Assembly (NCBI GenBank): GCA_021800255.1
Contig: JAJYZC010000016.1
Coordinates: forward strand, 1-51,572
Direction: 5' to 3'
Source of the DNA: Acidobacteriota bacterium
GTDB lineage: Bacteria > Acidobacteriota > Terriglobia > Terriglobales > Acidobacteriaceae
Length of the DNA stretch: 51,572 nucleotides
The notes below the pieces were generated by a model, which did not search any database, was not told the origin of the DNA, and was given only the letters and a program-made list of their open reading frames with translations. How positions within the stretch are numbered: position 1 is the first letter of the stretch; each line of letters opens with the position of its first letter. This document shows, in pieces, positions 68 through 26,176 of the stretch. The position numbers and the translations under genes are program-made.

Positions 68-319
68 GGCTCTAGTTCAATTTTAGTGTCGATTGAATTC
101 CGCGCTCACCATGAATCCGGCGCGCTGCACGCCAGGGTGAGGAAAACCGAGCCTAAATTCGCCTCGGCGAAGCAACCGCCTCATTCCACCCGAAGCCCTG
201 TCATCCCGGGCAGCCAGACGCGAATTCCCAAACGGCCGCGGCTGTCGCCTCGCACCGCCCCCGGCGGCTGACGCTCAATGCGCGCAGGCACGCGAAATAA
301 ACATAAGTCTTTTATCTTG

Positions 320-368
<49 letters not shown>

Positions 369-387
369 GGGTCAGACCACTTTTTGA

Positions 388-538
388 AATTCGTTGAATT
401 TGGCTGTCCGCAACTAATTGATATGGAAAGCGTTGCGGACGAAGCGCATGGAGGTATTGATCTTTGAGGCATCTGGATGCTCTGGTTGCCACAAATTTGT
501 CTCCAGCCACAGAAATCTCTAGTCGATAATTCGTTGAA
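388..538 (+). repeat. Candidate integrase arm-site repeats next to attL
   Basis: An 11-bp motif AATTCGTTGAA occurs at 388-398 and again at 528-538 in the same orientation, just inside the left attachment core. Between them, at 486-502, lies TTGCCACAAATTTGTCT, which recurs at 26031-26047 near the other end. Short repeats flanking a core are typical of arm-type integrase or excisionase binding sites; that role is inferred. The rest of 369-674 has no supported gene. Confidence 0.45.
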
Positions 539-674: not shown

Positions 675-1010
675 CTAAACCCACATCACTTTGTTATCGC
701 GAATAAAAAAATGACTCTGACAAGGCTCATCTCGCAGCCAGACGGAGGGATTGAGCGTGGCTTTGCCATTCTTGATGGCGAGAGACCAGTTCGGCCCTTG
801 GCTCTTCACGAGATTCAGATCGATTCTCCTGCCGCAGTTGCAGGGGCAATTGAACACGGCCCGGCGGTCGAAACCTGCCCGGCGAACAACGTAGAAGTTC
901 GATGCAAGTCTTGCCGGAACGTCCGTCATCGATTCGACGATGATGACTCTCTTAATGTCTGGCCGTTTCTGAAGACACTGCCACCAGCGACGAAGCGCTT
1001 TTAGGATCAT
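675..1010 (-). CDS. DUF6527 family protein of a bacterial Ubl operon
   Basis: A 111-residue protein and the last gene of the ubiquitin-like operon. Visible marks are a cysteine cluster CPCNCG, a central W, a C-x2-HFF element near the C-terminus and a terminal MWV. Together these match my recollection of the DUF6527 family, found beside ThiF/JAB/E2/multiubiquitin genes. The cysteines suggest metal binding; no biochemical role can be read from the sequence. The ATG at 1010-1008 overlaps the TGA of the JAB-E1 gene (ATGA) and has a GGAGGGAAG ribosome site. A GTG at 1022 would add four residues but lies within that site. The overlap implies translational coupling, so this is a genuine operon member. 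Confidence 0.75.
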   Translation of the reverse strand: MILKALRRWWQCLQKRPDIKRVIIVESMTDVPARLASNFYVVRRAGFDRRAVFNCPCNCGRRIDLNLVKSQGPNWSLAIKNGKATLNPSVWLRDEPCQSHFFIRDNKVMWV

Positions 1011-2398
1011 TCTTCCCTCCACGTTAAGCCAAGAAATCGAGCCTGATCGCCTCGACCTATTCTGGTTGCATCAGTACAAATACACCCAGGCTGCTGAATC
1101 GCTCCGGGCTTCCTGATTGCGCTTTCGTCAAAACGTATCAAGAGTTCCCCAGCCTGATAATCCTCTCCCTTAAACCCAGTCAGACGGTTGAGAAACTCAC
1201 CAATCGCCAGGGCGGCAGTTGCGGTAGTGAAGGCAATTACAGCCGGCTCGGCATCTGGTAACTCCGGGATGTACCCTTCGCGGCGACGCTTGTCCGCCTC
1301 CTCGGGTGCCAACTCCTGCAACTGCTCTGCGGCTACACCTTCTGGGGTAACCTGGCGACGGCAGAGCAGACATGGTTGCCCTGGAATCAAAGTGGTCACG
1401 CGTCCAGGGATGGAGCGGATGACACCGTCCTTCGAATCAATTTTGATCCCAATGTCAAAAATAGGGACACTATATTCAATACTGAAGAGGCTCAAAAGAG
1501 ACCTGCCCCACTGATCGTCAGTGCAGCCGAAAATGATGTCACAGTCACGAAATTTCTTCATCTCAGATTGGTACGTAACTGGCCGTTTGATCAAATCAAC
1601 GCGGGTTCCAAAGCCGAGATGGCGAGCAAGGCGTCCCATAAGAACTGCTTTTGAGATCCCCACATCATCAGTCTGTGAACCATAGACGCGACTAACGTTT
1701 GAGCGTTCAAGAGATTGGCCGTCCGCAACAATGAGATGACCTACACCCAGCCGAATGAGTTGTTCAGTAACCGAGGAACCTGTCCCTCCGGTCCCAACAA
1801 CCCCCACTGTAAGACTTTTAAGGAGAGGTTGTAGGTCCGGGCCAAACGCTCTTACCGCACGGTCGTGGAAGCTCGTATCTACCGAGCCATAGAGGCCACC
1901 CCTTGGGATGAAACGGATTCTCCGGCCAACGATACGGATGACATCAATGGGGTAAGTTTCGCCACCGTCCAGCCAGACTCGGCCCTGCATCATCTTCGGC
2001 TCACTGACAATCAGGCTGGCATGTAGCGCGTCTTTGGTCGAAATGCGGTTGTATGCGGTGCGAAATAGCCCCGGTTCCTCTCGATCATCTTGCTCGGAGT
2101 GATTGGGAACCCCTTTTGGATGTGAATGAACCAACACAAAGCACGTTTGTTCGCGATCGGCCTTTTTCATCACGGGCAAGAACGAACTTGCGGGGATACT
2201 CAGGTTGTGATCGCTTTGCGATAACAGATCTGAGTCCGGCACGCAAATGACCTGCCGAACGAGTAAGCGAGCTTCCGTGGCGGTACGGGACAGGCCGCAC
2301 AATAGATATGCGGCCCGCTCCCGATCATGCCCTTCGCCGAACAGATGTTCCGTGAGTTGGGCATACTGGGTCTCCAAGAATGTGAGAGTATGACGCAT
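1007..2398 (-). CDS. JAB deubiquitinase-like / E1 (ThiF) fusion protein
   Basis: A 463-residue two-domain protein. Residues about 1-150 form a JAB/JAMM metalloprotease with the complete zinc motif H91-S-H93-x7-S101-x2-D104. Residues about 170-440 form a ThiF/E1 adenylating domain, with the nucleotide loop GTGGTGSS (202-209), an acidic strand end at D226, an R-x-N-V-S-R element (232-237), CTDDQWGR (292-299) and paired cysteines C343/C346 and C439/C441 that could hold zinc. By family knowledge the E1 part activates a ubiquitin-like C-terminus with ATP, and the JAB part trims precursors or removes conjugates. It starts at ATG 2398, sharing one base with the E2 stop (TAATG). Fusion of protease and activating enzyme is known in predicted bacterial Ub systems. 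Confidence 0.88.
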   Translation of the reverse strand: MRHTLTFLETQYAQLTEHLFGEGHDRERAAYLLCGLSRTATEARLLVRQVICVPDSDLLSQSDHNLSIPASSFLPVMKKADREQTCFVLVHSHPKGVPNHSEQDDREEPGLFRTAYNRISTKDALHASLIVSEPKMMQGRVWLDGGETYPIDVIRIVGRRIRFIPRGGLYGSVDTSFHDRAVRAFGPDLQPLLKSLTVGVVGTGGTGSSVTEQLIRLGVGHLIVADGQSLERSNVSRVYGSQTDDVGISKAVLMGRLARHLGFGTRVDLIKRPVTYQSEMKKFRDCDIIFGCTDDQWGRSLLSLFSIEYSVPIFDIGIKIDSKDGVIRSIPGRVTTLIPGQPCLLCRRQVTPEGVAAEQLQELAPEEADKRRREGYIPELPDAEPAVIAFTTATAALAIGEFLNRLTGFKGEDYQAGELLIRFDESAIRKPGAIQQPGCICTDATRIGRGDQARFLGLTWREE

Positions 2399-2802
2399 TA
2401 GATACCTTTCTGCAATTCTCGGCGTATGGTTCCAAGAAAAGTCTTGAGGTTGTCGGTTCCAGGGCGCCAGGAGCTAACATCCGGGTGACGGGACCAGCGT
2501 TGCCATTGGCGGCCCTGAAACTGCACATCGAGAACATCGGCAGCCTTCGGGTATGCCCCATTTGCAAGCCTGACGTGCGGAAATGTCCAGAACATGTCAG
2601 GGCAGGCCAGCGGAAAATTGAGCGGCAACCGCAGCAAGAGATCCGTCGTCTGTAGGTTGTATCCTGTGGGCAAAGGAAAATTGCGAATCGCCACGCAAAT
2701 GAACCCCTCCTCTCGCTGCACATCAAAGACATGGCCTTTGTCTTTAAGGTGCTTCACATCCTCTTCTGCAAGCAATTCCTCAAGAGTGTCTGCTGCGGTC
2801 AT
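2398..2802 (-). CDS. E2-like (UBC fold, Prok-E2_E type) protein
   Basis: A 134-residue protein placed between the ubiquitin-like and E1 genes. The stretch LRLPLNFPLACPDMFW (57-72) resembles the proline-rich strand of E2 enzymes. The C-terminal W-x-R-H and WRPG elements (103-115) followed by a long helix resemble the Prok-E2_E family. Only two cysteines exist, C36 and C67, and both lie before the position where the catalytic cysteine normally follows the HPN region. It may therefore use another residue or be non-catalytic. Its ATG at 2802 overlaps the Ubl stop as ATGA, so the two are coupled. The family assignment rests on context plus motifs. Confidence 0.75.
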   Translation of the reverse strand: MTAADTLEELLAEEDVKHLKDKGHVFDVQREEGFICVAIRNFPLPTGYNLQTTDLLLRLPLNFPLACPDMFWTFPHVRLANGAYPKAADVLDVQFQGRQWQRWSRHPDVSSWRPGTDNLKTFLGTIRRELQKGI

Positions 2803-3266
2803 AGGGACACCCCCGGGGTCACTTGTCCAAGACTGGAATAAAACTTCTCGTCCTTCCGAACACGAATGGTAGTGGTGTTGTTGGGGATTGGCTGATCCTC
2901 TTCTGGGCCGCTGGTTTCGCGGTAAAGGATGTAGTTGTCCGGAACCTCGCCGAGCACATAGAGTGCGGCACCGGTTGTTTCCTTCGGAGACTCGACACGC
3001 TTGCGATCAATGATGATTTCGACTTTTTTCCCATTCGGTTCGGAATAGAATTTCTCACCTTCGTGCAAGTGAATCTCCGAATCGTCCAAGGGAACTGGAG
3101 GGTCTTCGCGCTCGCTCTCCGGCTTTTCGCGATAGAGCGTGTGCTCTGGTTGAACACCACCAAGCGCGTATAACGCCTTGCCTGTCGTGGGTGTTGGGGA
3201 TACGTGATGCATTGCATCAATTGTGATCGTGACTTCCTTGCGGTTTTCGTTTACTTGGTCTGCCAT
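2799..3266 (-). CDS. Tandem ubiquitin-like (multiubiquitin) protein
   Basis: A 155-residue protein built of two similar ubiquitin-like units, about 11-74 and 81-143. Each runs K-x-V-x-I-x-I-D, then TTG-x-ALY-x-LG, then a L-YRE segment, an acidic loop with P-x-P or P-I-P, an I-x-(H/R)-x strand and a closing E-KFYS. This is the layout of the Multi_ubiq family. The tail is VTPGVSL: Gly152 could be the mature C-terminus after removal of VSL, since no Gly-Gly is encoded in this frame. The start ATG at 3266 has a GAGGAG site nine bases upstream. It is the first gene of the four-gene operon and the presumed modifier. Confidence 0.88.
   Translation of the reverse strand: MADQVNENRKEVTITIDAMHHVSPTPTTGKALYALGGVQPEHTLYREKPESEREDPPVPLDDSEIHLHEGEKFYSEPNGKKVEIIIDRKRVESPKETTGAALYVLGEVPDNYILYRETSGPEEDQPIPNNTTTIRVRKDEKFYSSLGQVTPGVSL
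2811..2817 (-). other. -1 slippery heptamer at the end of the Ubl gene
   Basis: On the minus strand the bases C CCG GGG fit the X XXY YYZ pattern in the Ubl frame. A one-base backward slip would give Thr-Pro-Gly-Gly-Val-Pro and continue straight into the ATG and frame of the E2 gene. No experiment supports slippage; a chance GC run or a sequencing length error is possible. Confidence 0.4.
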
Positions 3267-3513: not shown

Positions 3514-4215
3514 TCACAATAACCACTGCTGTTGAGTGTCTGCCCCGAACAGTTGCTTAATCCTTATCTTGGCAACCAGTGGATTGACGTTGAAGACCTC
3601 GGCCAAGGCTCGTGCCGCCTCTTCAATGCGGTCATGATCGAAGTGTGGAAATCCTGCAGGCCCCTTCAACATGAACTCGCCCAAGGACTCGGTGACAAGA
3701 GCAGAGGGCATTAGCAACCCACCAATGGCACGGTTCGCTTGGAATTCCCACCAGTTTCCTGCATACTGCACCCGAGAATTTCCGAGAACTTCATCTCTGC
3801 AAAGAACCTTTGGTTTGTCCGGCTCACTGAAGTCTCCAAACAGTTTCTGCGTTGGTGTCGCCAAAGCAAACAGATGTGCATGGAGTAGACAATGACCGCC
3901 TTCGTGTGCAAGAGTCGTGCGTATCCGGCGCTCTGCAACAGTACTTGAATCGTCGTCGAGCGCTTTGGCCACGACAACCTCTCTTACGCCCTTTTGGCCA
4001 AACCGGGTAAGCCCCAGTACTCCATCTGGCAAATCTTCATATGTCGGAACTACGCCGAAGCGCTTTTCGATGAAGCGGTCAATTCTAACGGCTTCTGGAC
4101 GTGTTGGTAGCAAACCGACTTCTCGAAGGGCTTCGGTACAGATGGTCTCTATTTCCCGGTCTTCGTAGAAAGGCCGCTCAAGGAATGGCCCGGTTGTGGA
4201 TCGAAAGTTCTTCAT
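3514..4215 (-). CDS. ImmA/IrrE-type zinc metallopeptidase
   Basis: A 233-residue protein with the zinc-protease helix H104-E-G-G-H108 in TLAHEGGHCLLH. A downstream WWEFQANRAIGGLLMP helix supplies the likely third ligand, as in ImmA/IrrE peptidases. By family knowledge such enzymes cleave a partner XRE repressor and relieve repression on a damage or phage cue. Its ATG overlaps the TGA of the XRE gene (ATGA), so the two are coupled and probably functional partners. The pair sits directly upstream of the ubiquitin-like operon, like the CapH/CapP regulator pair described for some CBASS loci. That parallel is an analogy, not proof. Confidence 0.85.
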   Translation of the reverse strand: MKNFRSTTGPFLERPFYEDREIETICTEALREVGLLPTRPEAVRIDRFIEKRFGVVPTYEDLPDGVLGLTRFGQKGVREVVVAKALDDDSSTVAERRIRTTLAHEGGHCLLHAHLFALATPTQKLFGDFSEPDKPKVLCRDEVLGNSRVQYAGNWWEFQANRAIGGLLMPSALVTESLGEFMLKGPAGFPHFDHDRIEEAARALAEVFNVNPLVAKIRIKQLFGADTQQQWLL

Positions 4216-4559
4216 TGGTTCTTCTGCCTGTCGGACTTGCCTTCAGTCATTTTCAGCACGTCCTCGGGTGTAATCTCCTTATCTACAAGTTTGCGCAACG
4301 CCAGCCCAAAGGCCGGATCGCTCAGTGCAAGCCTCTTAATCTCCTCTACCGGCGGGCGTGTGTCCAAAACGCGCAGTTCTGCCTCATCCACCTTGAAGAA
4401 CACAGCCAGTTTCTTCAGCAATTCATCTGACGGATAGCGCCGACCGAACTCAATATCAGACAGATGTGCAGCTGTTACTTCACCAATTTGTTTGGCTAGC
4501 TCACGCAGAGAGAGATCGTTTGCATCTCTCAGCTTGCGAAGCTGATCGCCTAATGTCAT
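4212..4559 (-). CDS. XRE-family transcriptional regulator
   Basis: A 115-residue protein. Residues about 1-60 (from MTLGDQLRKLRDANDL through FGRRYPSDELLKKLAVFFKV) form a typical XRE/Cro helix-turn-helix. The rest is an acidic, charged tail that may be the peptidase target. The ATG at 4559 is preferred because GGTAGG lies nine bases upstream; ATGs at 4565 and 4580 are in frame. It is coupled to the ImmA-like gene through ATGA. A candidate operator lies 18 bases before the start, so autorepression, plus repression of the ubiquitin-like operon, is the simplest model. Confidence 0.85.
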   Translation of the reverse strand: MTLGDQLRKLRDANDLSLRELAKQIGEVTAAHLSDIEFGRRYPSDELLKKLAVFFKVDEAELRVLDTRPPVEEIKRLALSDPAFGLALRKLVDKEITPEDVLKMTEGKSDRQKNQ

Positions 4560-4576
4560 TTTCATACCTACCGTCA

Positions 4577-4592
4577 GCATACACCTGCGTAC
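4577..4592 (+). promoter_or_regulatory. Candidate operator copy 1 (GCATAC-n3-TGCGTAC)
   Basis: GCATAC-ACC-TGCGTAC sits immediately upstream of the XRE start and matches the site at 3482-3496. Its place over the probable XRE promoter fits an autoregulatory operator. No clear -35/-10 pair could be defined. Bases 4593-4777 hold no supported gene. Confidence 0.45.
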
Positions 4593-4777
4593 GTTTCATG
4601 TCAAGGCCGTCAACCGGTATTCACTCTTGGGCCAAATCCTTGGGGCCACGACAGACTGTCGCCATCGCGCACCTTGAATCTGCTAGGGATGCGGCCAGAC
4701 CTCATTGCGCGGGGCATTGTTCGGAGACGCGAAACAAATAGATTCCTTGGCGACCTGGAGCCACTTCCTTGGAAGTC

Positions 4778-6412
4778 TTAGGTAGGCGCTTGCCCTATTT
4801 CTCCGTTCAGCTTGTCACATAGCCGATCCACCCAGAGCTCCCAGAAATCCTGGTTTATTGCCGAAAATGTCTCACTGAATGCCTCGCCCTGTTGCCCTTT
4901 GTTGAGGCAGAATGCTCCTTCCTGATTTGTGTGGTTTCTTTTGCTAGAAGTTCGAGCTTTGAGTCGAGGAGGGCCACCAAACCGTACATTAGGCCGCTGA
5001 GCGGCCTCTGAGAGTGCAGATTTTAGCTTGAATTCGAGGTTTTTCCCATTAGCCGAGCGGTTCGACATTGAGGCTTCGAGTACTTGTCGCTTTTCCTGGA
5101 GATTCCCCACTTCGTACTGTAAATACAGCCGTTTTACGAGTTCGACATATTCCTGCATCCGGCGCAGACAGGATGTAGGGTCGGCGTTCAGCTGTCCCAT
5201 TTCGTCCTCATATTCAAGGCGCTCTGAAAGGAGTGCCTTTTTACGCTCATTAAAAGCGTCCTTGTCGATATTGCCGTCTATGTAGATATCTGTGAGGCGA
5301 TTGAGCCGATCCTTGACGGCGGCGATCTTCAACTCAATTGATGCTACTCTGCGATCCTTGTCTGCAACTGCTTGGCGTTCCTTGTGGGAAGCGTAACGGT
5401 CTAGAACAGCTACTTCCTTTGGGTGCATTTGCAGCCCCGTAATCATTCGTTTGACCTCCTGATCCAATATCTCCTCGCGGAATATGGTCGATGGGCATTG
5501 CGAACTGTGACATCGATAATAAATGTGCCCCTTTTGCATTTCGCCCACGAGAGAGCGCCCGCAGTTCTGGCAGCATACAAGGCGTCCAAAAAGAAATTCG
5601 CGGCGTATCGGAACTGAAGCACGATTAACCTTGCCCGACATAGTGGTTTTAACCTGCTCAAACAATTCACGGCTTATCAGAGGCTTGTGACTTCCCAAGA
5701 AGCTCTGATTGGTCTTTTTAACAACCATAAGACCATAATAAAAGGGGTTTGAGAGCGCATCAGCCAGGGTAGTGGCACTTACCCTTGTTCCCCTTCTGGG
5801 CCGCAGTCCTCGTCGATTAAGTTCCGCTGCAAGACTACGAAGACTGTATTGCCCGGTCGAATACAGACGAAACGCTTCTCTGATAAGCGGACCACAGACA
5901 GGGTCAATGATCTTAGGTTTTCCAGCGCCAGCATTCAGGTAACCAATGGGAGCCGGCATGGGATAGATACCCTGCTTCAAGCGTCCGTAGAACCCTTTGA
6001 TGGTTTCCTCGCGTAAATTGCGAACGTAGTTAGAAGCAACGACAGCTTGAACATCGGCTGCAAGCCTGCCGCTGGAAGATTTGAGATCAAGAGATTCACG
6101 AGTGAAGTAGACTTCGATGCCGTCTTCCGCGAGCTGGGCCACATCAACCCAATCTCGAAGATTCCTCGCACTTCGGTCAATCTTGTGGATGATGACCCCC
6201 TGCGCTTCCCCTTTGCGCAGTCGTTTAAGCATGTCGGTAAAGATTCGTCTGCCAATCTTAGCCGCCGTTTCCCTCTCCTCAAACCACATTGAAATCGCTA
6301 GCCCTTTTTGGGCGGCATATCTTTCAATTTCTGCCTTCTGTTCTTGCAGAGAAACTCCTTGCTCACCTTGTCTCTGAGTGGAGACACGAGTATAGGCAAA
6401 ATATGTCTTCAT
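4778..6412 (-). CDS. Large serine recombinase
   Basis: A 544-residue site-specific recombinase. The N-terminal resolvase domain starts YTRVSTQRQ with the nucleophile Ser11 and R9, and contains the DRSARNLRDW motif. A central recombinase domain follows (about 150-260, YLNAGAG to FYYGLMVV). Next come a zinc ribbon (CQNCG and YRCHSSQCPS) and a long charged coiled-coil region (about 340-440). This is the architecture of phage- and transposon-borne large serine integrases. It is transcribed toward the XRE-ImmA genes but no overlap links them. Its own attachment sites, usually a 2-bp core in short inverted repeats, are not recognised here. It may be the integrase of a separate element nested in the island. 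Confidence 0.93.
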   Translation of the reverse strand: MKTYFAYTRVSTQRQGEQGVSLQEQKAEIERYAAQKGLAISMWFEERETAAKIGRRIFTDMLKRLRKGEAQGVIIHKIDRSARNLRDWVDVAQLAEDGIEVYFTRESLDLKSSSGRLAADVQAVVASNYVRNLREETIKGFYGRLKQGIYPMPAPIGYLNAGAGKPKIIDPVCGPLIREAFRLYSTGQYSLRSLAAELNRRGLRPRRGTRVSATTLADALSNPFYYGLMVVKKTNQSFLGSHKPLISRELFEQVKTTMSGKVNRASVPIRREFLFGRLVCCQNCGRSLVGEMQKGHIYYRCHSSQCPSTIFREEILDQEVKRMITGLQMHPKEVAVLDRYASHKERQAVADKDRRVASIELKIAAVKDRLNRLTDIYIDGNIDKDAFNERKKALLSERLEYEDEMGQLNADPTSCLRRMQEYVELVKRLYLQYEVGNLQEKRQVLEASMSNRSANGKNLEFKLKSALSEAAQRPNVRFGGPPRLKARTSSKRNHTNQEGAFCLNKGQQGEAFSETFSAINQDFWELWVDRLCDKLNGEIGQAPT

Positions 6413-12799: not shown

Positions 12800-13852
12800 A
12801 TGGCCTTATACAAGCGAGGTCTGCACTGGCACTCGTACATCATGATCGACGGCGTACGTCACCGCCGGGGCCTGGGAACCGGGAACCGCAGACGGGCCGA
12901 AGTTCTTGAACGCGAGTTCCGAGACGAGCTTGAGGCCAAGGCCACAGGGTTCGTCGAGCTTCAACCGGAGATGACCTTTGCGGAATTGTCCGCGCGCTTT
13001 CTCGCTTCCGGGGAAGTGAAGCCTTACCACACCGACCGGCTGAAGGTGCTTCTGCCGTTCTGGGGATCAATCGAGCTACGCGCCATTACTCGTGCAAAGG
13101 TTCGTGAATATCGGGCTGCACGAATGAAGGCGAAGAAGCTCACGGATACCACCGTGAACCGCGACCTCGAAGTCCTGCGCCACATGATGTATTGGGCGGT
13201 GGACGAAGGGATCATCTCCGTAAACCCGCTGGCACGGCTTCAGATGCAGCGTGCCCGCAAGCGTAAACGCCCGATCCTTTCTTGGGAAGACGAACAGAAG
13301 CTCATCGCTGCCGCTTCGCCGCACCTGACAAGGATCATCGTTGCTGCCCTCGATACCGGGATGAGGCGCGGCGAAATCACTCACCAACTCTGGGAGGATG
13401 TCGATTTCTCCCGGGGCGCGCTCTCCGTGACCCACTCGAAGACCCCGGAGGGAGAGGCCAGGGAAATTCCACTCACCGACAGGATGCGAGCCATGCTCAC
13501 AGTCTGCCGAGAGTCTTCAGGACTGATCTTCACCTTCAAGGAAAACCCCATCTCCCGCATCAAGACCGGGTGGGCCTCGGCCATCAGGCGCTCCGGAATC
13601 GAAAGGCTCAGATTTCACGATTTGCGCCACACCTTCAACACCAGGCTCCTTGATCTCGGCGTGTTGACCGATGTGCGCAAGGCCCTCATGGGACACAGTT
13701 CCGGGGAAGACGTGCATTCGATTTACACCCATGTGGAGATGCCGCTTAAGCGTAAGGCTGTGGATTTGCTCAACGCCTGGATACGCGAACAGATGCATGT
13801 ATCAAGGCCAAACCCAAAGGAGGAAAGCGATGGACCAACAGAGGGCCGGTGA
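12800..13852 (+). CDS. int: Tyrosine recombinase (integrase)
   Basis: A 350-residue phage-type integrase. An N-terminal arm-binding segment (RGLHWHSYIMIDGVRHRRGLG) and a SAM-like core-binding domain (about 58-150) precede the catalytic domain. The catalytic set is complete: R189 in TGMRRGE, K214 in the beta-hairpin, H273-x2-R276 in FHDLRHTF, H299 in MGHSS and the nucleophile Y309 in SIYTHVE. It would catalyse integration at a tRNA 3' end and is the best candidate for the 49-bp attachment repeats. It lies about 12 kb from either end rather than beside the tRNA. An AAAGGAGG site precedes the ATG by nine bases. Confidence 0.95.
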   Translation: MALYKRGLHWHSYIMIDGVRHRRGLGTGNRRRAEVLEREFRDELEAKATGFVELQPEMTFAELSARFLASGEVKPYHTDRLKVLLPFWGSIELRAITRAKVREYRAARMKAKKLTDTTVNRDLEVLRHMMYWAVDEGIISVNPLARLQMQRARKRKRPILSWEDEQKLIAAASPHLTRIIVAALDTGMRRGEITHQLWEDVDFSRGALSVTHSKTPEGEAREIPLTDRMRAMLTVCRESSGLIFTFKENPISRIKTGWASAIRRSGIERLRFHDLRHTFNTRLLDLGVLTDVRKALMGHSSGEDVHSIYTHVEMPLKRKAVDLLNAWIREQMHVSRPNPKEESDGPTEGR

Positions 13853-19815: not shown

Positions 19816-22224
19816 CTATGCAGCCTCTTGGTATAGGTATTTCTGGAATCCGACAAATACCTTGTTTATCTCCTCAGGCATGCCGAGGTCTTTAACCGCA
19901 TCCGAAATGGAATTAAAATATTTCAAGCGCAACAAGGGCGTCAGTTTTTCTTGATCAAGTTCATCCACACCAACGCCGACATATTGAGCCAACACAAAGT
20001 CCAAAAAGGCCTGCTGCTTGCTGTTGAAGTTCCTTGCGATGGCAAGCCTTGCCCTGTTGGCGCGCTCCTCGCGCGTTAATGTCGGCAGGGCATATGCGAC
20101 ATACGCGAGTACGTCAAAGATGTCGCTCTTTTCGGCGTCGATGATTCGCTGCATCTCAGCGAGTTGCTCGTGTCCGAAACCCTTCTCTGCAAGTCCGTCC
20201 AGGAGCTTCTTCCGCGTATCCGGGGTGCTCCATAGGGCGCGCAGTTCGGCTTCGTCTTTGAAGAACTCTGGCAGCCTACCGAACAGCATTTCCATGAACT
20301 GTTGTGCGGACATCGGCGTGCCGTCCGGATGCCAGAATGTGGTGCAAACCATGTGCTGGATTGTGCGATCTTTGCCGTCCGCGAGCTTCACTTTCGCTTT
20401 CTTCTTACGCTCACACACGCACGGACGCTGTCCGCACACCTCACAGGGTTCTTTCGGACATTCGCAGGGAGTCTTCCCGCATACCGAGCACGGCTGTGGT
20501 ACGGGCTTTACGCATTGGCAGGGATGAAAGCCGCATTTCTCGCACGGTTCCGGCTCCAAAGGTTCTCCGTCCCATTCAGGATCGCTGAAGTGATGATAGG
20601 CCTTCACAAAATCATAGATGGTGAAATAGTCTTTGCCGTCGTAAAGCCGGGTGCCGCGCCCGATGATCTGCTTGAATTCAATAATCGAGTTGATCGGCCT
20701 CATCAGAACGATATTGCGGATATTACGGGCATCCACACCAGTCGAGAGCTTCTGCGATGTCGTCAGAATCGTCGGGATGGTCTTTTCGTTGTCCTGGAAA
20801 TCCCTGAGGTATTGGTCACCGAGAACCCCGTCGTTTGCCGTTACCCTCTGGCAATAGTTGGGGTCTTTACTGGTCTTCATCTGGTTAATCAGATCCCGCA
20901 CGGCCAGTGCGTGTTCTTGTGTCGCACAGAAGACGAGCGTCTTCTCCCGCTGGTCGATCTGCTCCAGGAAGAGCTTTACGCGGTGAGCTTCGCGCTCCTT
21001 GATCTCGATGATACGGTTAAAGTCCTCTTCGGTATACCGCTTGCCGCTTTCGACTTCGCCCTCGACGATTCTGTCGTCGGGAGTATAGACGTATTCATCC
21101 AGAGTGGTCGAAATCTGCTTCACCCTGAAGGGGGTCAAGAATCCGTCGTTGATTCCATCCTTGAGTGAGTAGATGAACACCGGCTCGCCGAAATAGGCGT
21201 AGGTGTCGGCATTCTCTTGGCGTTTTGGCGTGGCGGTCAATCCAAGCTGTACAGCAGGGGCGAAATACTCCATGATGCCGCGCCAGTTGCCTTCGTCGTT
21301 CGCGCCGCCGCGGTGGCACTCGTCAATCACGATAAAGTCGAAGAAGTCTGCCGGGTATTCACCGAAGTATGGAGACGGTTTGCCGTCCTTGACCGGACCG
21401 CTCATGAACGTCTGGAAGATCGTGAAGAAGACGCTGGCATTCTTCGGAACTTTGCCCTTCTTGCGTATGTCCTCTGGCTTGATCCGGGCCAGCGCATCAT
21501 CCGGAAAGGCGGCAAACGAGGTAAAGCCGTTATAGGCCTGATCGGCAAGGGTATTGCGGTCAGCAAGGAACAGGATGCGCGGCCGTCTGGTTGGCGCATC
21601 GCCCTTCTTCCAGTCTGTCAGGTTCCAGCGAGCACTAAAGAGCTTCCACGCAATCTGGAAGGCAATCGAGGTCTTGCCGGTGCCGGTGGCGAGCGTCAAA
21701 AGAACTCGATCACGCCCTTCTTCGATGGCCTGCAGTACGCGGTTGACGGCAATTTCCTGATAGAAGCGCAGCGACCACGTTCCGCTCTTGTCGGGGTATG
21801 GAATGGCGGCGAAACGATCGCGCCAGGAATTTGCAACAGCGAATGTTTTGTCCCAGAGTTCGTCCGGTGTCGGAAATCGAGAGGTTTCGCCCTCCTGGCC
21901 GGTCACCATATCGATGGCGTAGATACCTTGACCATTTGTCGAATATGTAAAGCGGATGGCAAGCTTCTCAGCGTAATTCTTCGCTTGGCCAACGCCATCC
22001 GTCAGTTCCTTGTCCCAGGCTTTCGCCTCGACTACAGCGAGCTTCGTATTCCGATATTCCAGAACATAATCCGCCGTCAGCGGCTTTCCGCGACGGCCTT
22101 GGCCTTCGATGCGCCCCGGCACGATGTTGTATTCGCGCCGAATACGGCTTCCCTCTGTCACTCCCCATCTGGAGGCTCTGAGGGCCGGATCGATGTATTC
22201 CGCTCTGGTTTCGGATTCGTTCAT
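19816..22224 (-). CDS. hsdR: Type I restriction enzyme, R subunit (EcoEI-like)
   Basis: An 802-residue motor-nuclease subunit. The N-terminal nuclease motif is D52 with E66-x-K68 in AVVEAKAW. The helicase part has Walker A ATGTGKTS (179-186) and DECH (301-304). A cysteine-rich C-terminal segment follows, with repeated C-x2-C-x3-C-x-C units. The ATG at 22224 is chosen because the family starts near MNESETRAEY and AGGAAA lies upstream; an upstream in-frame ATG (22344) would run into hsdS. It sits 7 bp after hsdS. The subunit translocates DNA and cleaves it away from the recognition site. Confidence 0.95.
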   Translation of the reverse strand: MNESETRAEYIDPALRASRWGVTEGSRIRREYNIVPGRIEGQGRRGKPLTADYVLEYRNTKLAVVEAKAWDKELTDGVGQAKNYAEKLAIRFTYSTNGQGIYAIDMVTGQEGETSRFPTPDELWDKTFAVANSWRDRFAAIPYPDKSGTWSLRFYQEIAVNRVLQAIEEGRDRVLLTLATGTGKTSIAFQIAWKLFSARWNLTDWKKGDAPTRRPRILFLADRNTLADQAYNGFTSFAAFPDDALARIKPEDIRKKGKVPKNASVFFTIFQTFMSGPVKDGKPSPYFGEYPADFFDFIVIDECHRGGANDEGNWRGIMEYFAPAVQLGLTATPKRQENADTYAYFGEPVFIYSLKDGINDGFLTPFRVKQISTTLDEYVYTPDDRIVEGEVESGKRYTEEDFNRIIEIKEREAHRVKLFLEQIDQREKTLVFCATQEHALAVRDLINQMKTSKDPNYCQRVTANDGVLGDQYLRDFQDNEKTIPTILTTSQKLSTGVDARNIRNIVLMRPINSIIEFKQIIGRGTRLYDGKDYFTIYDFVKAYHHFSDPEWDGEPLEPEPCEKCGFHPCQCVKPVPQPCSVCGKTPCECPKEPCEVCGQRPCVCERKKKAKVKLADGKDRTIQHMVCTTFWHPDGTPMSAQQFMEMLFGRLPEFFKDEAELRALWSTPDTRKKLLDGLAEKGFGHEQLAEMQRIIDAEKSDIFDVLAYVAYALPTLTREERANRARLAIARNFNSKQQAFLDFVLAQYVGVGVDELDQEKLTPLLRLKYFNSISDAVKDLGMPEEINKVFVGFQKYLYQEAA

Positions 22225-22231
22225 AGGTTTC

Positions 22232-23353
22232 CTAAAGTTGGCCGGTGAAGGCTTGATGCAAAAGTGACTTCCTGAGTTCCTTAAGCGCGGAGAGCTTTTG
22301 TTTGTAAACTGATTCGAGTTTGCGAACAGTCTCGCGAAGCTCATCGAGCTTTAGAACAATTTCTTTCTGTTTCTTCACAGTTGGGAATGGAAACCGCTCA
22401 TCCTCGAAAGTCCCCAAGTTGATGTTGTCCTGAGCACTTCCTTTCCCTTTGGCTTGAAGGACTGCCTTGAAGGACTGCAAAAGGTACTCAATGAACCCGG
22501 TATCGGCTTCTCGTGGATTCACGACCATGCCAATAACGCTATCCGGAAAACAGGCATCAAAACCTAGGATTGCTGTTTCTGCAATGTTGGCGGCAATTGT
22601 AATGCAGATTGTCCCCTTCGGCCATAGTTTGCTTTGTGCCAATCCGGCTTCGCTATAGGTCTGCGAGTACTCAGAAATGACGTGATCCGCATTGCGTATA
22701 TCGCCAGTTTGAATAAAAGGATATTTACCACCATACAGGTACGGTGCATTTCTGGGACGATGCTTTGATTTGCCACGGCCAAAAGTTGTCGAGACTTCAG
22801 ACAGAGTCTTCAACTGCCAGTCTTTTTCATTCCTCCCAAAAATCGACTGCAATATGCTGTCGAACAAATCGCTGGCGTTTTGGAGATTCTTCTCAGCGTT
22901 TGCTTTGGCAGATTCGATTCCCTCGAATGCCTCATCGAGGACACTGACAATTCTCTTCTGCTCGGCTAGCACTGGAACTCGAATTGCCAGGGAGTAAACC
23001 TCACTGCGGTTGATTCCAGGCTTTACCCCTTTTGCCAACTTCGGCAAGTTCAAAGTCTCCAGCAGATAGTAAAGGAATCGCAAGTCATACTGCTTCTCAT
23101 CGAACGTGACAAAATAGGTCACATCCAATGGCCAGAACTTCGCCTCAGTTAGGTTGATTTCACCTGCGGAACCTTTCCGGCCAACGATAATGCTCGACTT
23201 TGAGTAATAATACTGGTCCGTGTGGTCCTTCTCTCCGTTCGCGCCATAAACCGGAAAGCTGCCATCGGGCTTCCTATGAGCTTCGTCAAGTGGTCTTCCG
23301 TACTCCAACTGAAGAACTTGACCGACAGTTGTCTCTTTCCAAGAGCTCTTCAT
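22232..23353 (-). CDS. hsdS: Type I restriction specificity subunit
   Basis: A 373-residue protein with two target-recognition domains. The first covers about 1-150 (VGQVLQLEYGRPL, then SSIIVGRKGSAGE, IRVPVLAEQKRIV). The second covers about 180-340 (LKTLSEVSTTFGRGKS, KYPFIQTGDIRNA, PTVKKQKEIVLKL). Each is followed by the helical spacer typical of HsdS (LDEAFEGIESAKANAEKN and LDELRETVRKLESVYKQK). Each half reads one side of a bipartite target. It overlaps hsdM by ATGA (start 23353, hsdM stop 23350). Confidence 0.93.
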   Translation of the reverse strand: MKSSWKETTVGQVLQLEYGRPLDEAHRKPDGSFPVYGANGEKDHTDQYYYSKSSIIVGRKGSAGEINLTEAKFWPLDVTYFVTFDEKQYDLRFLYYLLETLNLPKLAKGVKPGINRSEVYSLAIRVPVLAEQKRIVSVLDEAFEGIESAKANAEKNLQNASDLFDSILQSIFGRNEKDWQLKTLSEVSTTFGRGKSKHRPRNAPYLYGGKYPFIQTGDIRNADHVISEYSQTYSEAGLAQSKLWPKGTICITIAANIAETAILGFDACFPDSVIGMVVNPREADTGFIEYLLQSFKAVLQAKGKGSAQDNINLGTFEDERFPFPTVKKQKEIVLKLDELRETVRKLESVYKQKLSALKELRKSLLHQAFTGQL

Positions 23354-24834
23354 AGCAGCGCCTTTATACTTTCTAGTACCTCGGCGCTTTCGGCATCGAG
23401 TGCGGCAATCTCCTCCATGATCTCCTGAGAAGTGCGATACTTCGCCTCTTCTCCGCCGTTCGGATTCTTCACGGAAAGGTCAAACGTCGATTGGTCGATG
23501 TCCTTGGCCTCGATACTCCAACTCTTGGGCGAGTCGGCGAAAGTTTTCTGCAACTCGATAAACTCGGCAAGGTCATCGTCGTTCAACGGATTTGTCTTGC
23601 CAAGGTTACGGCCCGGATCAAGCTGGTAGTACCAAATCTTGCGTGTTGGTGCGCCCTTTTCAAAAAACAACACGACAGTCTTTACGCCCGCGCCCTGAAA
23701 GGTGCCGCCTGGGCAGTCCAGAATCGTGTGCAAGTTGCAGCTTTCCAGCAACGACTTCCTCAGGCTGATAGAGGCATTGTCGGTGTTCGAGAGAAATGTG
23801 TTTTTGATAACCACGCCGGCGCGACCGCCAGCCCGCAGCATCTTGATGAAGTGCTGTAAGAACAGAAATGCGGTCTCGCCAGTACGGATCGGGAAGTTTT
23901 GCTGAACTTCCTTGCGCTCCTTTCCGCCAAATGGCGGATTGGCCATAATTACGCCCACACGGTCCCGTTCCTGAATGTCGGCCAGGTTCTCTGTAAGCGT
24001 ATTGGTGTGGATGATGTTCGGAGCCTCAATGCCGTGCAGAATCATGTTCATGATCGCAATGACGTAGGCCAGCGACTTCTTTTCTTTACCGTAGAAGGTG
24101 CGCTCCTGAAGCGTCTTGAGGTCTTTGGTCGTGAGATGCGACTTCTTGCTCAGGTAATCGTAAGCCTCGCATAAGAACCCGGCGGAACCAACGGCGCCGT
24201 CATAAATCTTTTCGCCGATCTTCGGCTTCACAACCTGAACTATGGCGCGGATCAGCGGACGCGGCGTGTAGTATTCGCCGCCGTTGCGTCCTGCGTTGCC
24301 CATGTTCTTGATCTTGGCTTCATAGAGGTGCGAAAGCTCGTGCTTCTCGGTCTGGGAGCGGAAGTGCAATTCGTCGATCTGATCGATAATCTCGCGCAGG
24401 TTGTAGCCGCTCTGAATCTTGTTCTTGATTTCGCCGAAAATCTCGCCGATTTTGTACTCGATGGTGTTCGGGCTGGTGGCCTTCTCCTTGAAGCTGTGCA
24501 GGTATGGAAAGAGCTTCAGGTTTACGAAATCACGCAGATCGTCGCCTGTCTGCGCTCGATTGTGGTCCAGCTTGCCATCCTTGTCCTTCGGCGCAGCCCA
24601 GGTTCCCCAGCGATACGGAGCATCGAGGATATGGGTATACTTCTTTCCCTCCAGCGCCGCCTCGGTGCTCTTGTCTTGCTCAAGATCGTCCAGGTACTTC
24701 AAAAAAAGCAGCCACGAGGACTGCTCAGTGTAGTCCAGTTCACTGGAGCAACCAGCCTCTTTCCAGAGGATGTCGTCGATATTTTTGAACGTTTGTTCGA
24801 ACATGTGTCTTTGATTGCCCTCGGGCGATTCCAT
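23350..24834 (-). CDS. hsdM: Type I restriction methyltransferase subunit
   Basis: A 494-residue N6-adenine methyltransferase. The N-terminal helical part ends with EYYTPRPLIRAIVQ. The AdoMet motif is YDGAVGSAGFL (211-221; the usual form is DPxCGSGG), and the catalytic NPPFGG is at 299-304. The operon starts here: ATG 24834 has an AAGG site, while a second start at 24804 (MFEQTFKNIDDILW) would match the family start better and has GAGGG upstream. It modifies the host target so that HsdR does not cut it. Confidence 0.95.
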   Translation of the reverse strand: MESPEGNQRHMFEQTFKNIDDILWKEAGCSSELDYTEQSSWLLFLKYLDDLEQDKSTEAALEGKKYTHILDAPYRWGTWAAPKDKDGKLDHNRAQTGDDLRDFVNLKLFPYLHSFKEKATSPNTIEYKIGEIFGEIKNKIQSGYNLREIIDQIDELHFRSQTEKHELSHLYEAKIKNMGNAGRNGGEYYTPRPLIRAIVQVVKPKIGEKIYDGAVGSAGFLCEAYDYLSKKSHLTTKDLKTLQERTFYGKEKKSLAYVIAIMNMILHGIEAPNIIHTNTLTENLADIQERDRVGVIMANPPFGGKERKEVQQNFPIRTGETAFLFLQHFIKMLRAGGRAGVVIKNTFLSNTDNASISLRKSLLESCNLHTILDCPGGTFQGAGVKTVVLFFEKGAPTRKIWYYQLDPGRNLGKTNPLNDDDLAEFIELQKTFADSPKSWSIEAKDIDQSTFDLSVKNPNGGEEAKYRTSQEIMEEIAALDAESAEVLESIKALL

Positions 24835-25911: not shown

Positions 25912-26030
25912 GGCATCCCCTCGGCAGTGCTGTTCAGCGTTGCGCCGTTGAGCATGCAAATGAAAAACCAGGCGGAATTCCGATGGTGATATTGTTTGCT
26001 GTTGCGAGGAGAAGAACTTGGCGGCTTTCA

Positions 26031-26047
26031 TTGCCACAAATTTGTCT
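26031..26047 (+). repeat. Right copy of the 17-bp end repeat
   Basis: TTGCCACAAATTTGTCT, identical and in the same orientation to 486-502, lies 51 bp inside the right attachment core. It is a candidate arm-type binding site. A 17-bp match near both ends of one island is unlikely by chance. Confidence 0.5.
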
Positions 26048-26097
26048 ACATGGGCAATTTTGGCGGGCTGGGAGAATGCTGTATTTTATTGATTCTA

Positions 26098-26176
<79 letters not shown>

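What the first reader, a model, noticed from the sequence alone, without database searches (positions are those of the whole stretch)
675..3266. Compact bacterial ubiquitin-conjugation operon with a tandem Ubl
Four coupled genes encode a two-unit ubiquitin-like protein, an E2-like protein, a JAB-E1 fusion with an intact JAMM motif and ATP site, and a DUF6527 protein. All junctions overlap (ATGA, TAATG, ATGA). Seen: motifs, order and coupling. Known: related Ubl operons act in phage defence. Inference: this island-borne version is a defence system of the multiubiquitin type, which is much less studied than Bil-type loci. The DUF6527 component has no known role.
Basis: partly seen in the sequence, partly recalled or inferred. 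Interest (0 to 1): 0.85.

Follow-up and report, generated by a model that had tools for sequence, protein, structure and literature searches.

The report
Bacterial ubiquitin-like (Bub) conjugation operon
This is one more copy of a recently described bacterial ubiquitin-like protein-tagging operon, here carried on a mobile defence island with what looks like its own DNA-damage switch; the family is known, but what its fourth protein does and what the system protects against are still open.

Summary
In detail: four coupled minus-strand genes (675-3266) encode a tandem ubiquitin-like protein, an E2-like protein, a JAB-E1 fusion and a DUF6527 protein. It is a member of the Bub (bacterial ubiquitination-like) family: its E2 and JAB-E1 match the solved Citrobacter BubB and BubCD (E 1.4e-10 and 1.6e-36), its Ubl profile matches solved multi-ubiquitin proteins (5e-28), and the gene set is row 6e of Iyer et al. 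2006. Hundreds of such operons are in print, so it is not a new system. In two sister species close relatives of this pair sit before a curated anti-phage 6A-MBL operon. All of it lies on a 25.8-kb tRNA-Pro island beside a type I restriction system. Conserved residues suggest the chemistry: trimming after Gly152, adenylation, and transfer without an E2 cysteine (Ser104 and His106 in 87 of 87). DUF6527 is usual but not universal, also accompanies another E1 type that lacks E2 and JAB, and has phage relatives: it is the interesting unknown. Anti-phage action is inferred; the literature I could read says it has not been shown for Bub.

The parts
2799..3266 (-). BubA-like modifier: two beta-grasp (ubiquitin-like) units; predicted mature C-terminus Gly152, tail VSL removed
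   Evidence: Multi_ubiq 0.0044, under cut-off; G152 in 43 of 43
2398..2802 (-). BubB-like E2-fold protein without a conserved cysteine; Ser104, His106, Trp112, Asp69 invariant
   Evidence: PF14462 1.5e-32; Citrobacter BubB 1.4e-10; 87 of 87; no column with more than 21 Cys of 87
1007..2398 (-). BubCD-like fusion: N-terminal JAB/JAMM deconjugase, C-terminal ThiF-type E1 with a four-cysteine site (C343, C346, C439, C441)
   Evidence: (Citrobacter BubCD 1.6e-36)
675..1010 (-). DUF6527 protein (111 aa from ATG; GTG at 1022 possible); putative metal ligands C55, C59, C97, H100 (kept in 85, 68, 68 and 85 of 86)
   Evidence: PF20137 4.9e-22; model pLDDT 92.5
3514..4215 (-). CapP-like M78/ImmA-type metallopeptidase (HEGGH), predicted ssDNA-activated protease of the repressor
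   Evidence: PADLOC capP 3.2e-8; HExxH; Pfam M78 only 0.37
4212..4580 (-). CapH-like HTH repressor
   Evidence: HTH_3 4.4e-14; overlaps capP; relatives paired with CapP
4576..4604 (-). promoter-like site TTGACA-17-TATGCT just before capH (1 site in the region, shuffles give 2.6 on average, so weak)
311..372 (.). left direct repeat: copy of the 3' end of tRNA-Pro (island end)
   Evidence: 92% to 26089-26150, spacing 25,778
26089..26150 (.). right direct repeat, overlapping the intact tRNA-Pro gene
26100..26176 (-). tRNA-Pro(cgg), the likely integration site
4778..6412 (-). large serine recombinase
   Evidence: Resolvase 1.5e-25, Recombinase 5.9e-17
12800..13852 (+). tyrosine integrase of the island
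   Evidence: PF00589 4.6e-21
19816..24834 (-). type I restriction-modification genes hsdM, hsdS, hsdR on the same island

Best explanation
A Bub operon under a CapH/CapP-type switch, carried on a mobile defence island. Proposed working: (1) CapH keeps the genes off; single-stranded DNA from phage attack or damage activates CapP, which cuts CapH (in print for other CapH/CapP pairs, inferred here). (2) The JAB domain trims the last three residues (VSL) of the di-ubiquitin-like BubA, leaving Gly152 (inferred from conservation). (3) The ThiF-type E1 adenylates Gly152 (inferred from family and kept ATP-site residues). (4) BubA passes to the E2-like protein and on to targets without an E2 cysteine, most likely through invariant Ser104 with His106 (inferred). 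(5) DUF6527 helps in choosing or presenting targets (guess). (6) The JAB domain can also remove the tag. Rough step likelihoods: Bub-family conjugation operon 0.95; CapH/CapP control 0.85; Gly152 maturation 0.85; cysteine-free E2 0.8; anti-phage purpose 0.6; DUF6527 in target selection 0.3 (lowered from 0.35 because three distant Ubl-E2-E1 loci lack it).
For: Solved homologues BubB and BubCD and multi-ubiquitin proteins. Recurring gene set: of 88 loci in the main count, E2 in 86, DUF6527 in 86, Ubl in 83. Gly at the mature end: motif in 56 of 59 standalone Ubls, 43 of 43 aligned, and, read by eye, a Gly in the linker of 26 of 26 Ubl-E2 fusions. No conserved Cys in 87 E2s; S104 and H106 in 87 of 87. 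JAMM 88 of 88. Switch: PADLOC capP 3.2e-8; CapP-like genes within 4.6 kb upstream in 51 of 74 loci with enough flank against 6 of 68 downstream, adjacent CapH+CapP in 28 of 74 against 4 of 68. Among 98 other genomes searched, two congeners have a close CapP (51 and 50%) and one more genome a weak hit; both close pairs stand before anti-phage 6A-MBL genes over NCBI's cut-offs. Print: 219 of 544 Bub operons have CapW or CapH+CapP (PMC13373217, passages).
Against: No experiment shows phage protection by a Bub operon in what I could read. The two core Bub papers are not held. CapP's Pfam score is under threshold (0.37), and a sequence search of the PDB gave no peptidase match (best 0.013, to isocitrate dehydrogenase). 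The iterated CapP profile also collects other M78 proteins (12 long fusions), so 51 of 74 is generous. E1 Cys292 is kept in 86 of 88, so a cysteine step on the E1 is not excluded. DUF6527 is missing in L015 and L017-L019. No promoter-like site was found between capP and bubA. The third CapP-like relative (L206) has no E1 or other Bub hit by my profiles next to it.
Confidence: 0.72

Rival explanations
1. Same biochemistry, but the purpose is a general DNA-damage or stress response rather than phage defence.
For: The switch type senses DNA damage, not phage as such; PMC13373217 (passages) raises this for Bub openly and says protection has not been shown.
Against: Patchy presence (E2 family in 4 of 80 genomes of the genus, own included, 3 over the cut-off), mobile island next to a type I restriction system, and sister pairs of the switch before 6A-MBL.
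Confidence: 0.3
2. The HTH-peptidase pair belongs to the mobile element (like ImmR/ImmA of integrative elements) and only happens to lie next to the operon.
For: A serine recombinase gene ends about 200 bp before capH on the same strand; an HTH-containing regulatory module is reported for an integrative element of Streptococcus mutans (PMC10233336, start of abstract in a listing).
Against: L014, L042, L050 and L052 have the pair in the same orientation before Bub genes, with no serine recombinase hit in the stretch examined; the nearest CapP in the Bub set (54%, L014) is before another Bub operon, and the congeners' pairs stand before 6A-MBL.
Confidence: 0.12
3. BubA works mainly as an assembling (filament) protein and the enzymes only modify or trim it.
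For: Closest folds include entries titled multi-ubiquitin protein filament from Citrobacter and Methylobacterium.
Against: Conserved Gly end, intact JAMM and ATP-site residues, and an E2-like protein in 86 of 88 loci; the title of Ye et al. 2026 speaks of protein conjugation (seen in reference lists).
Confidence: 0.1
4. A sulfur-carrier or cofactor system of the ThiS/MoaD kind.
For: ThiF family E1 with a four-cysteine site.
Against: E2-like, JAB and DUF6527 partners; the Ubl profile hits multi-ubiquitin proteins, not ThiS/MoaD; ThiF equivalog score far under NCBI's cut-off (61 against 275 bits); no biosynthesis family among the ten island proteins scanned.
Confidence: 0.01

Closest known systems
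Bub operons (bubA, bubB, bubCD; Citrobacter structures 9ea4, 9eae, 9eav)
   Same: E2-like and JAB-E1 fusion of about the same lengths; E2 1.4e-10 and JAB-E1 1.6e-36; a multi-ubiquitin Ubl
   Different: The window's E1 has C343-x2-C346 and C439-x-C441; the first pair is not cysteine in Citrobacter BubCD, and the aligned stretch does not reach the second. The Ubl looks like a lineage-own duplication: nine of the closest relatives have one unit
Row 6e operons, 'polyUbl', Iyer, Burroughs and Aravind 2006 (PMC1779556)
   Same: PolyUbl, E2/RWD-like protein lacking cysteine, JAB fused to E1, metal-binding protein Y; 2-3 Ubl repeats (passages)
   Different: Nothing basic; the signature printed there for protein Y (C-x3-C-x35-38-H-x2-C) differs in its last part from ours (C55, C59, C97, H100, that is C-x2-H)
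CapH+CapP control of immune operons
   Same: HTH plus M78-type peptidase directly upstream, overlapping genes
   Different: CapP-like protein is divergent (PADLOC 3.2e-8, Pfam 0.37)
Bil (BilABCD)
   Same: Ubl, E1, E2 and JAB in one operon; two-unit modifier like ISG15
   Different: Bil E2 has a catalytic Cys in a CEHH motif and a two-half E1 with a Cys domain (PMC11354881, passages); here no conserved E2 Cys and one ThiF unit fused to JAB
Ubl + DUF6791-ThiF + DUF6527 loci (probably the 'domain X' versions of row 6e; that equation is mine)
   Same: Ubl, ThiF E1 and DUF6527 in the same order
   Different: DUF6791 in place of JAB, no E2 found, Ubl ending in Ser rather than Gly

Membership tests
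Bub operon | Ubl of the multi-ubiquitin family with beta-grasp fold | tested here: met
   profile to 9cd2 5e-28, fold to 9d59 1.3e-7; single-sequence Pfam under cut-off and no phmmer hit in PDB
Bub operon | BubB-type E2 (Prok-E2_E) without catalytic cysteine | tested here: met
Bub operon | JAB and E1 fused (BubCD) with JAMM and ATP-site residues | tested here: met
Bub operon | DUF6527 / metal-binding protein Y as fourth gene | tested here: met
   whether Ye et al. count it as a Bub component could not be read; it is absent in 5 of 91 loci
Bub operon | conjugates its Ubl to proteins | not testable with these tools
   needs mass spectrometry
CapH+CapP switch | HTH protein plus M78-type zinc peptidase next to the operon | tested here: met
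   HTH_3 4.4e-14, PADLOC capP 3.2e-8, HEGGH; Pfam M78 under cut-off
CapH+CapP switch | ssDNA-activated cleavage of CapH and induction by DNA damage | not testable with these tools
   experiment
Bil (BilABCD) | E2 with catalytic cysteine | tested here: not met
   window Cys36 and Cys67 are Cys in 15 and 4 of 87; no column has more than 21
CBASS type II or 6A-MBL | CD-NTase or MBL enzyme in the operon, E1-E2 in one chain (CD-NTase part recalled) | tested here: not met
   separate E2 and JAB-E1 here; 6A-MBL cap2_3 26 bits against cut-off 320; no such enzyme among the window proteins scanned
ThiS/MoaD sulfur carrier system | ThiF/MoeB equivalog E1 with cofactor genes nearby | tested here: not met

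The most novel reading that the evidence does not exclude
DUF6527 is a long-missing specificity factor (an E3-like or acceptor subunit) of bacterial E1-driven tagging, with a fold that has no match among the solved structures searched. It accompanies two kinds of E1 (JAB-E1 with an E2, and DUF6791-E1 without E2 or JAB), and phages carry stand-alone relatives of the second type to misdirect or block tagging. In this window the four-gene core plus the exchangeable CapH/CapP cassette would then be a plug-in immune module.
Probability: 0.12. Interest if true: 0.78.

Novelty: new member of a known kind. Interest (0 to 1): 0.4.

Why it matters
As a member it is ordinary: the family, its gene set, E1/E2 structures and its DNA-damage switches are in print. 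It still matters in two ways. The operon is compact, intact and linked to a switch whose close relatives stand before a curated anti-phage system in sister species, which makes the open question 'is Bub a phage defence?' directly testable. And the comparison singles out DUF6527: where present it varies in step with the E1 as closely as the E2 does (r 0.895 against 0.900 in 82 loci), it also goes with an E1 type that lacks E2 and JAB, its confidently predicted fold has no match in the solved structures searched, and phages have relatives. Against too strong a reading, three distant Ubl-E2-E1 loci do without it.

Tried and rejected
Single-sequence searches for the Ubl failed (phmmer against PDB 0 hits; NCBIfam and PADLOC none); the profile settled it. 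DUF6527 found nothing in PDB by sequence or fold (Foldseek best E 1.2; VIA best Z 3.6, 42 residues aligned); Z this low means little, and a missing match does not show a new fold. The metal site could not be checked in space because the models came without coordinates. In the eight phage proteins, three (L111, L112, L114) lack the cysteine that answers to C97, so the putative ligands are not fully kept there. I considered that phages carry the Bub-type DUF6527: a tree of 82 rows (33 of 67 phage loci, 41 of 86 Bub, 7 DUF6791-type, 1 orphan; the divergent L198 and L199 dropped) put the phage rows with the DUF6791 type instead (split 98/88, few columns, bootstrap not settled). In 68 phage loci no E1, E2 or Ubl profile hit lies within 3.5 kb of DUF6527, and I saw no convincing recurring neighbour. 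E1 homologues in annotated phages: none in 50,697 records; in IMG/VR 5 contigs, of which L100 is Bub-like and L101 broken. Rows dropped before the main counts: L017-L019 (weak PF14462 hits; later scanned: clear E1, E2 in all three, Ubl in two, DUF6527 in none) and L102-L104 (partial, weak E1). The organism was not identified: the handles search told no kinship for named loci. Literature: DUF6527 0 papers, and 0 with ubiquitin-like, bacteria and phage together; BubCD, 6A-MBL, DUF6791 and three related terms 0 papers; one broad search returned almost only unrelated papers.
Full report
Observation. Four frames on the minus strand run 3266-2799, 2802-2398, 2398-1007 and 1010-675, each overlapping the next (ATGA, TAATG, ATGA). 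Pfam gives Prok-E2_E (1.5e-32), ThiF (4.8e-25), Prok-JAB (5.2e-6) and DUF6527 (4.9e-22) over the curated cut-offs; the 155-aa protein reaches Multi_ubiq at 0.0044, under the cut-off. A profile of 43 sequences settles the last: four solved multi-ubiquitin proteins match at 5e-28 to 1.5e-21. The AlphaFold model (pLDDT 89.3, pTM 0.63) finds the same proteins first (best 1.3e-7), then talin FERM domains and ISG15 (1e-4) in the PDB; overall rmsd to the first rows is high (about 13 A), as would be if the two units are set differently.

What it is. The E2 and JAB-E1 match Citrobacter BubB and BubCD (1.4e-10 and 1.6e-36). Gene content is row 6e of Iyer et al. 2006 (PMC1779556, passages read), which already lists a polyUbl, an E2/RWD-like protein without cysteine, a JAB-E1 fusion and a metal-binding protein. 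The family is now called Bub, with 544 operons counted by its authors (PMC13373217, passages read). The two main Bub papers (Ye et al. 2026, Gong et al. 2025) are not held; I know them here by title from reference lists only.

Relatives. One scan of genome contigs gave 459 relatives of the JAB-E1, of which the best 80 were kept. The two without DUF6527 are L015 and L101 (broken E1). Three more distant loci from the phylum survey (L017-L019), which I had left out, have a clear E1 and an E2, two of them a Ubl, and no DUF6527, so the full count is 86 of 91. DUF6527 is on the opposite strand, convergent, in 7 loci (L028, L030, L031, L032, L034, L036, L038). Plasmids: 153 of 72,556 records match the JAB-E1, 64 of them predicted conjugative. 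In the window's genus the E2 family is in 4 of 80 genomes, own included, 3 over the cut-off.

Chemistry read from conservation. JAMM residues H91, H93, S101, D104: 88 of 88. E1: G202 and G207 88 of 88, R237 and K250 87 of 88 with one gap. Four cysteines C343, C346, C439, C441: CCCC in 70, CCHC in 12 of 88; in Citrobacter BubCD the first pair is not cysteine, and the alignment stops before the second. C292 is Cys in 86 of 88, so a cysteine step on the E1 cannot be excluded. E2: in 87 sequences no alignment column has more than 21 cysteines; S104, H106, W112, D69 are in 87 of 87, and the same W-S-R-H stretch is in Citrobacter BubB. L017-L019 are not in these alignments. The Ubl ends in NPG, TPG, TEG or NNG plus 0-14 residues in 56 of 59 standalone proteins; the misses are L015, L049 and one of two in L088; in 26 of 26 Ubl-E2 fusions I read a Gly in the linker. 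The window has G152 followed by VSL. The simplest reading is trimming by JAB, adenylation of Gly152, and transfer through a serine. All of this is inference from sequence.

Tandem modifier. The two units are 31 of 65 identical (score 131; shuffles mean 25, maximum 50 of 500). Nine of the closest relatives (L020-L027, L047) show a single unit, so the duplication looks lineage-own, and unit 1 lacks the PG end, so the mature form should be a di-Ubl.

The switch. 4580-4212 (HTH) and 4215-3514 (HEGGH peptidase) overlap and lead into bubA. PADLOC names the peptidase capP (3.2e-8); Pfam M78 gives only 0.37, and a sequence search of the PDB gave no peptidase. CapP-like genes lie within 4.6 kb upstream in 51 of 74 loci with that much flank, against 6 of 68 downstream; adjacent CapH+CapP pairs in 28 of 74 against 4 of 68 (the window is included, single chains holding both domains count as pairs, and the iterated profile takes in other M78 proteins). 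The core proteins vary together (E1 against Ubl 0.909, E2 0.900, DUF6527 0.895; 3,321 pairs, 82 loci); CapP, taken as the best hit anywhere in the locus, does so less (0.50, 1,653 pairs), which fits an exchangeable switch. In 99 related genomes including its own, the CapP query finds two close relatives, both in congeners (51 and 50%), and one weak one. Both close pairs stand, same orientation, before genes that exceed NCBI's cut-offs for the anti-phage 6A-MBL system (285 and 290 bits against 220; 411 and 384 against 320); the weak one (L206) has a CapH-like partner but no E1 hit beside it. This is the best evidence I have for a defence role. In print, CapP is activated by ssDNA and cuts CapH, and 219 of 544 Bub operons have CapW or CapH+CapP; the same paper says phage protection by Bub has not been shown (PMC13373217, passages).

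The island. A 62-bp repeat of the tRNA-Pro end lies at 311-372 and 26089-26150, 25,778 bp apart, with tRNA-Pro at 26100-26176. GC is 50-58% up to 26 kb and 61-67% beyond. Inside are a serine recombinase, a tyrosine integrase, a Dam-like methylase (just under NCBI's cut-off), a HerA/TrwB-like ATPase, a Replic_Relax protein, an SMC-like ATPase and hsdM-hsdS-hsdR.

DUF6527. The model is confident (pLDDT 92.5, pTM 0.82) and mostly strands; no PDB match (best Foldseek E 1.2; best Z 3.6). Putative ligands in 86 Bub sequences: C55 85, C59 68, C97 68, H100 85. In 297 genomes of the phylum 17 have the family. Six of these are genomes with the Bub E2. Of the ten others that I fetched, seven have DUF6527 right after a ThiF-type E1 of 392-462 aa; Pfam, run on five of the seven, shows DUF6791 in place of JAB. 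Six of the seven have a short Ubl-like frame ending in Ser just upstream (Multi_ubiq confirmed by Pfam in the two tested, the others by eye); the E2 profile found nothing there. One is an orphan Bub-type DUF6527 (L195) and two are divergent (L198, L199). The 17th (G105) was not fetched. Phage relatives: 3 of 50,697 annotated phages and 65 IMG/VR loci. Two of them keep C55, C59, C97 and H100, but three of the eight lack the C97 counterpart. The best viral fold match has E 3.8e-8. The tree puts the phage proteins with the DUF6791 type, not with Bub. So DUF6527 goes with two kinds of E1 but is not in every Bub-like locus. That fits a role in target choice or transfer, but nothing here proves it.

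Verdict. Observation confirmed; interpretation right in kind, overstated in novelty and in certainty of defence. A new member of a known kind, worth testing because of its switch and because DUF6527 is still unexplained.

Noticed in passing
L059 3533-6958; L080 3541-6963; also L070, L071, L075, L076, L083, L086, L087, L089, L094; L091 9721-13098 (downstream): A protein of about 1,140 aa joins an M78 (CapP-type) peptidase, a UvrD helicase and a PD-(D/E)XK nuclease next to Bub operons; 12 such long ORFs, 2 scanned in Pfam. Possibly a DNA-end-sensing switch in one chain.
   Followed up: partly
L190-L194, L196, L197: Systems without E2 and JAB: Ubl-like frame ending in Ser (not found in L194), DUF6791-ThiF E1 (Pfam run on 5 of 7), DUF6527. 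L191's Ubl seems to join a BubA-like unit to a DUF6791-type unit.
   Followed up: partly
L105 4890-5174, L106 3908-4177, L107 3944-4258, 65 IMG/VR loci (L108-L172): Stand-alone DUF6527 proteins in phages, some on contigs over 200 kb, with no E1, E2 or Ubl hit within 3.5 kb.
   Followed up: partly
L204 2894-7567, L205 2707-7317: Sister species of the window's genus carry capH-capP followed by an anti-phage 6A-MBL operon.
   Followed up: yes
L017 5119-7205, L018 6338-8453, L019 6393-8218: Distant Ubl-E2-E1 loci (Ubl found in L017 and L018) without a DUF6527 hit, with CapH-like genes near.
   Followed up: no
window 474-505 and 26019-26050: A second, inner direct repeat (32 nt, 81%) near both island ends, perhaps recombinase arm sites.
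   Followed up: no
L025 5687-6637: A histidine-kinase-type ATPase gene (CapK-like?) upstream of a close Bub relative, so near kin may use a different switch.
   Followed up: no
L195 4948-5331: Orphan Bub-type DUF6527 without an E1 hit nearby in a genome of the window's family.
   Followed up: no
window 16704-19700 (-): Large SMC/AAA-type ATPase next to hsdR, like Ppl and other defence ATPases in PADLOC (Ppl 6.5e-29).
   Followed up: no
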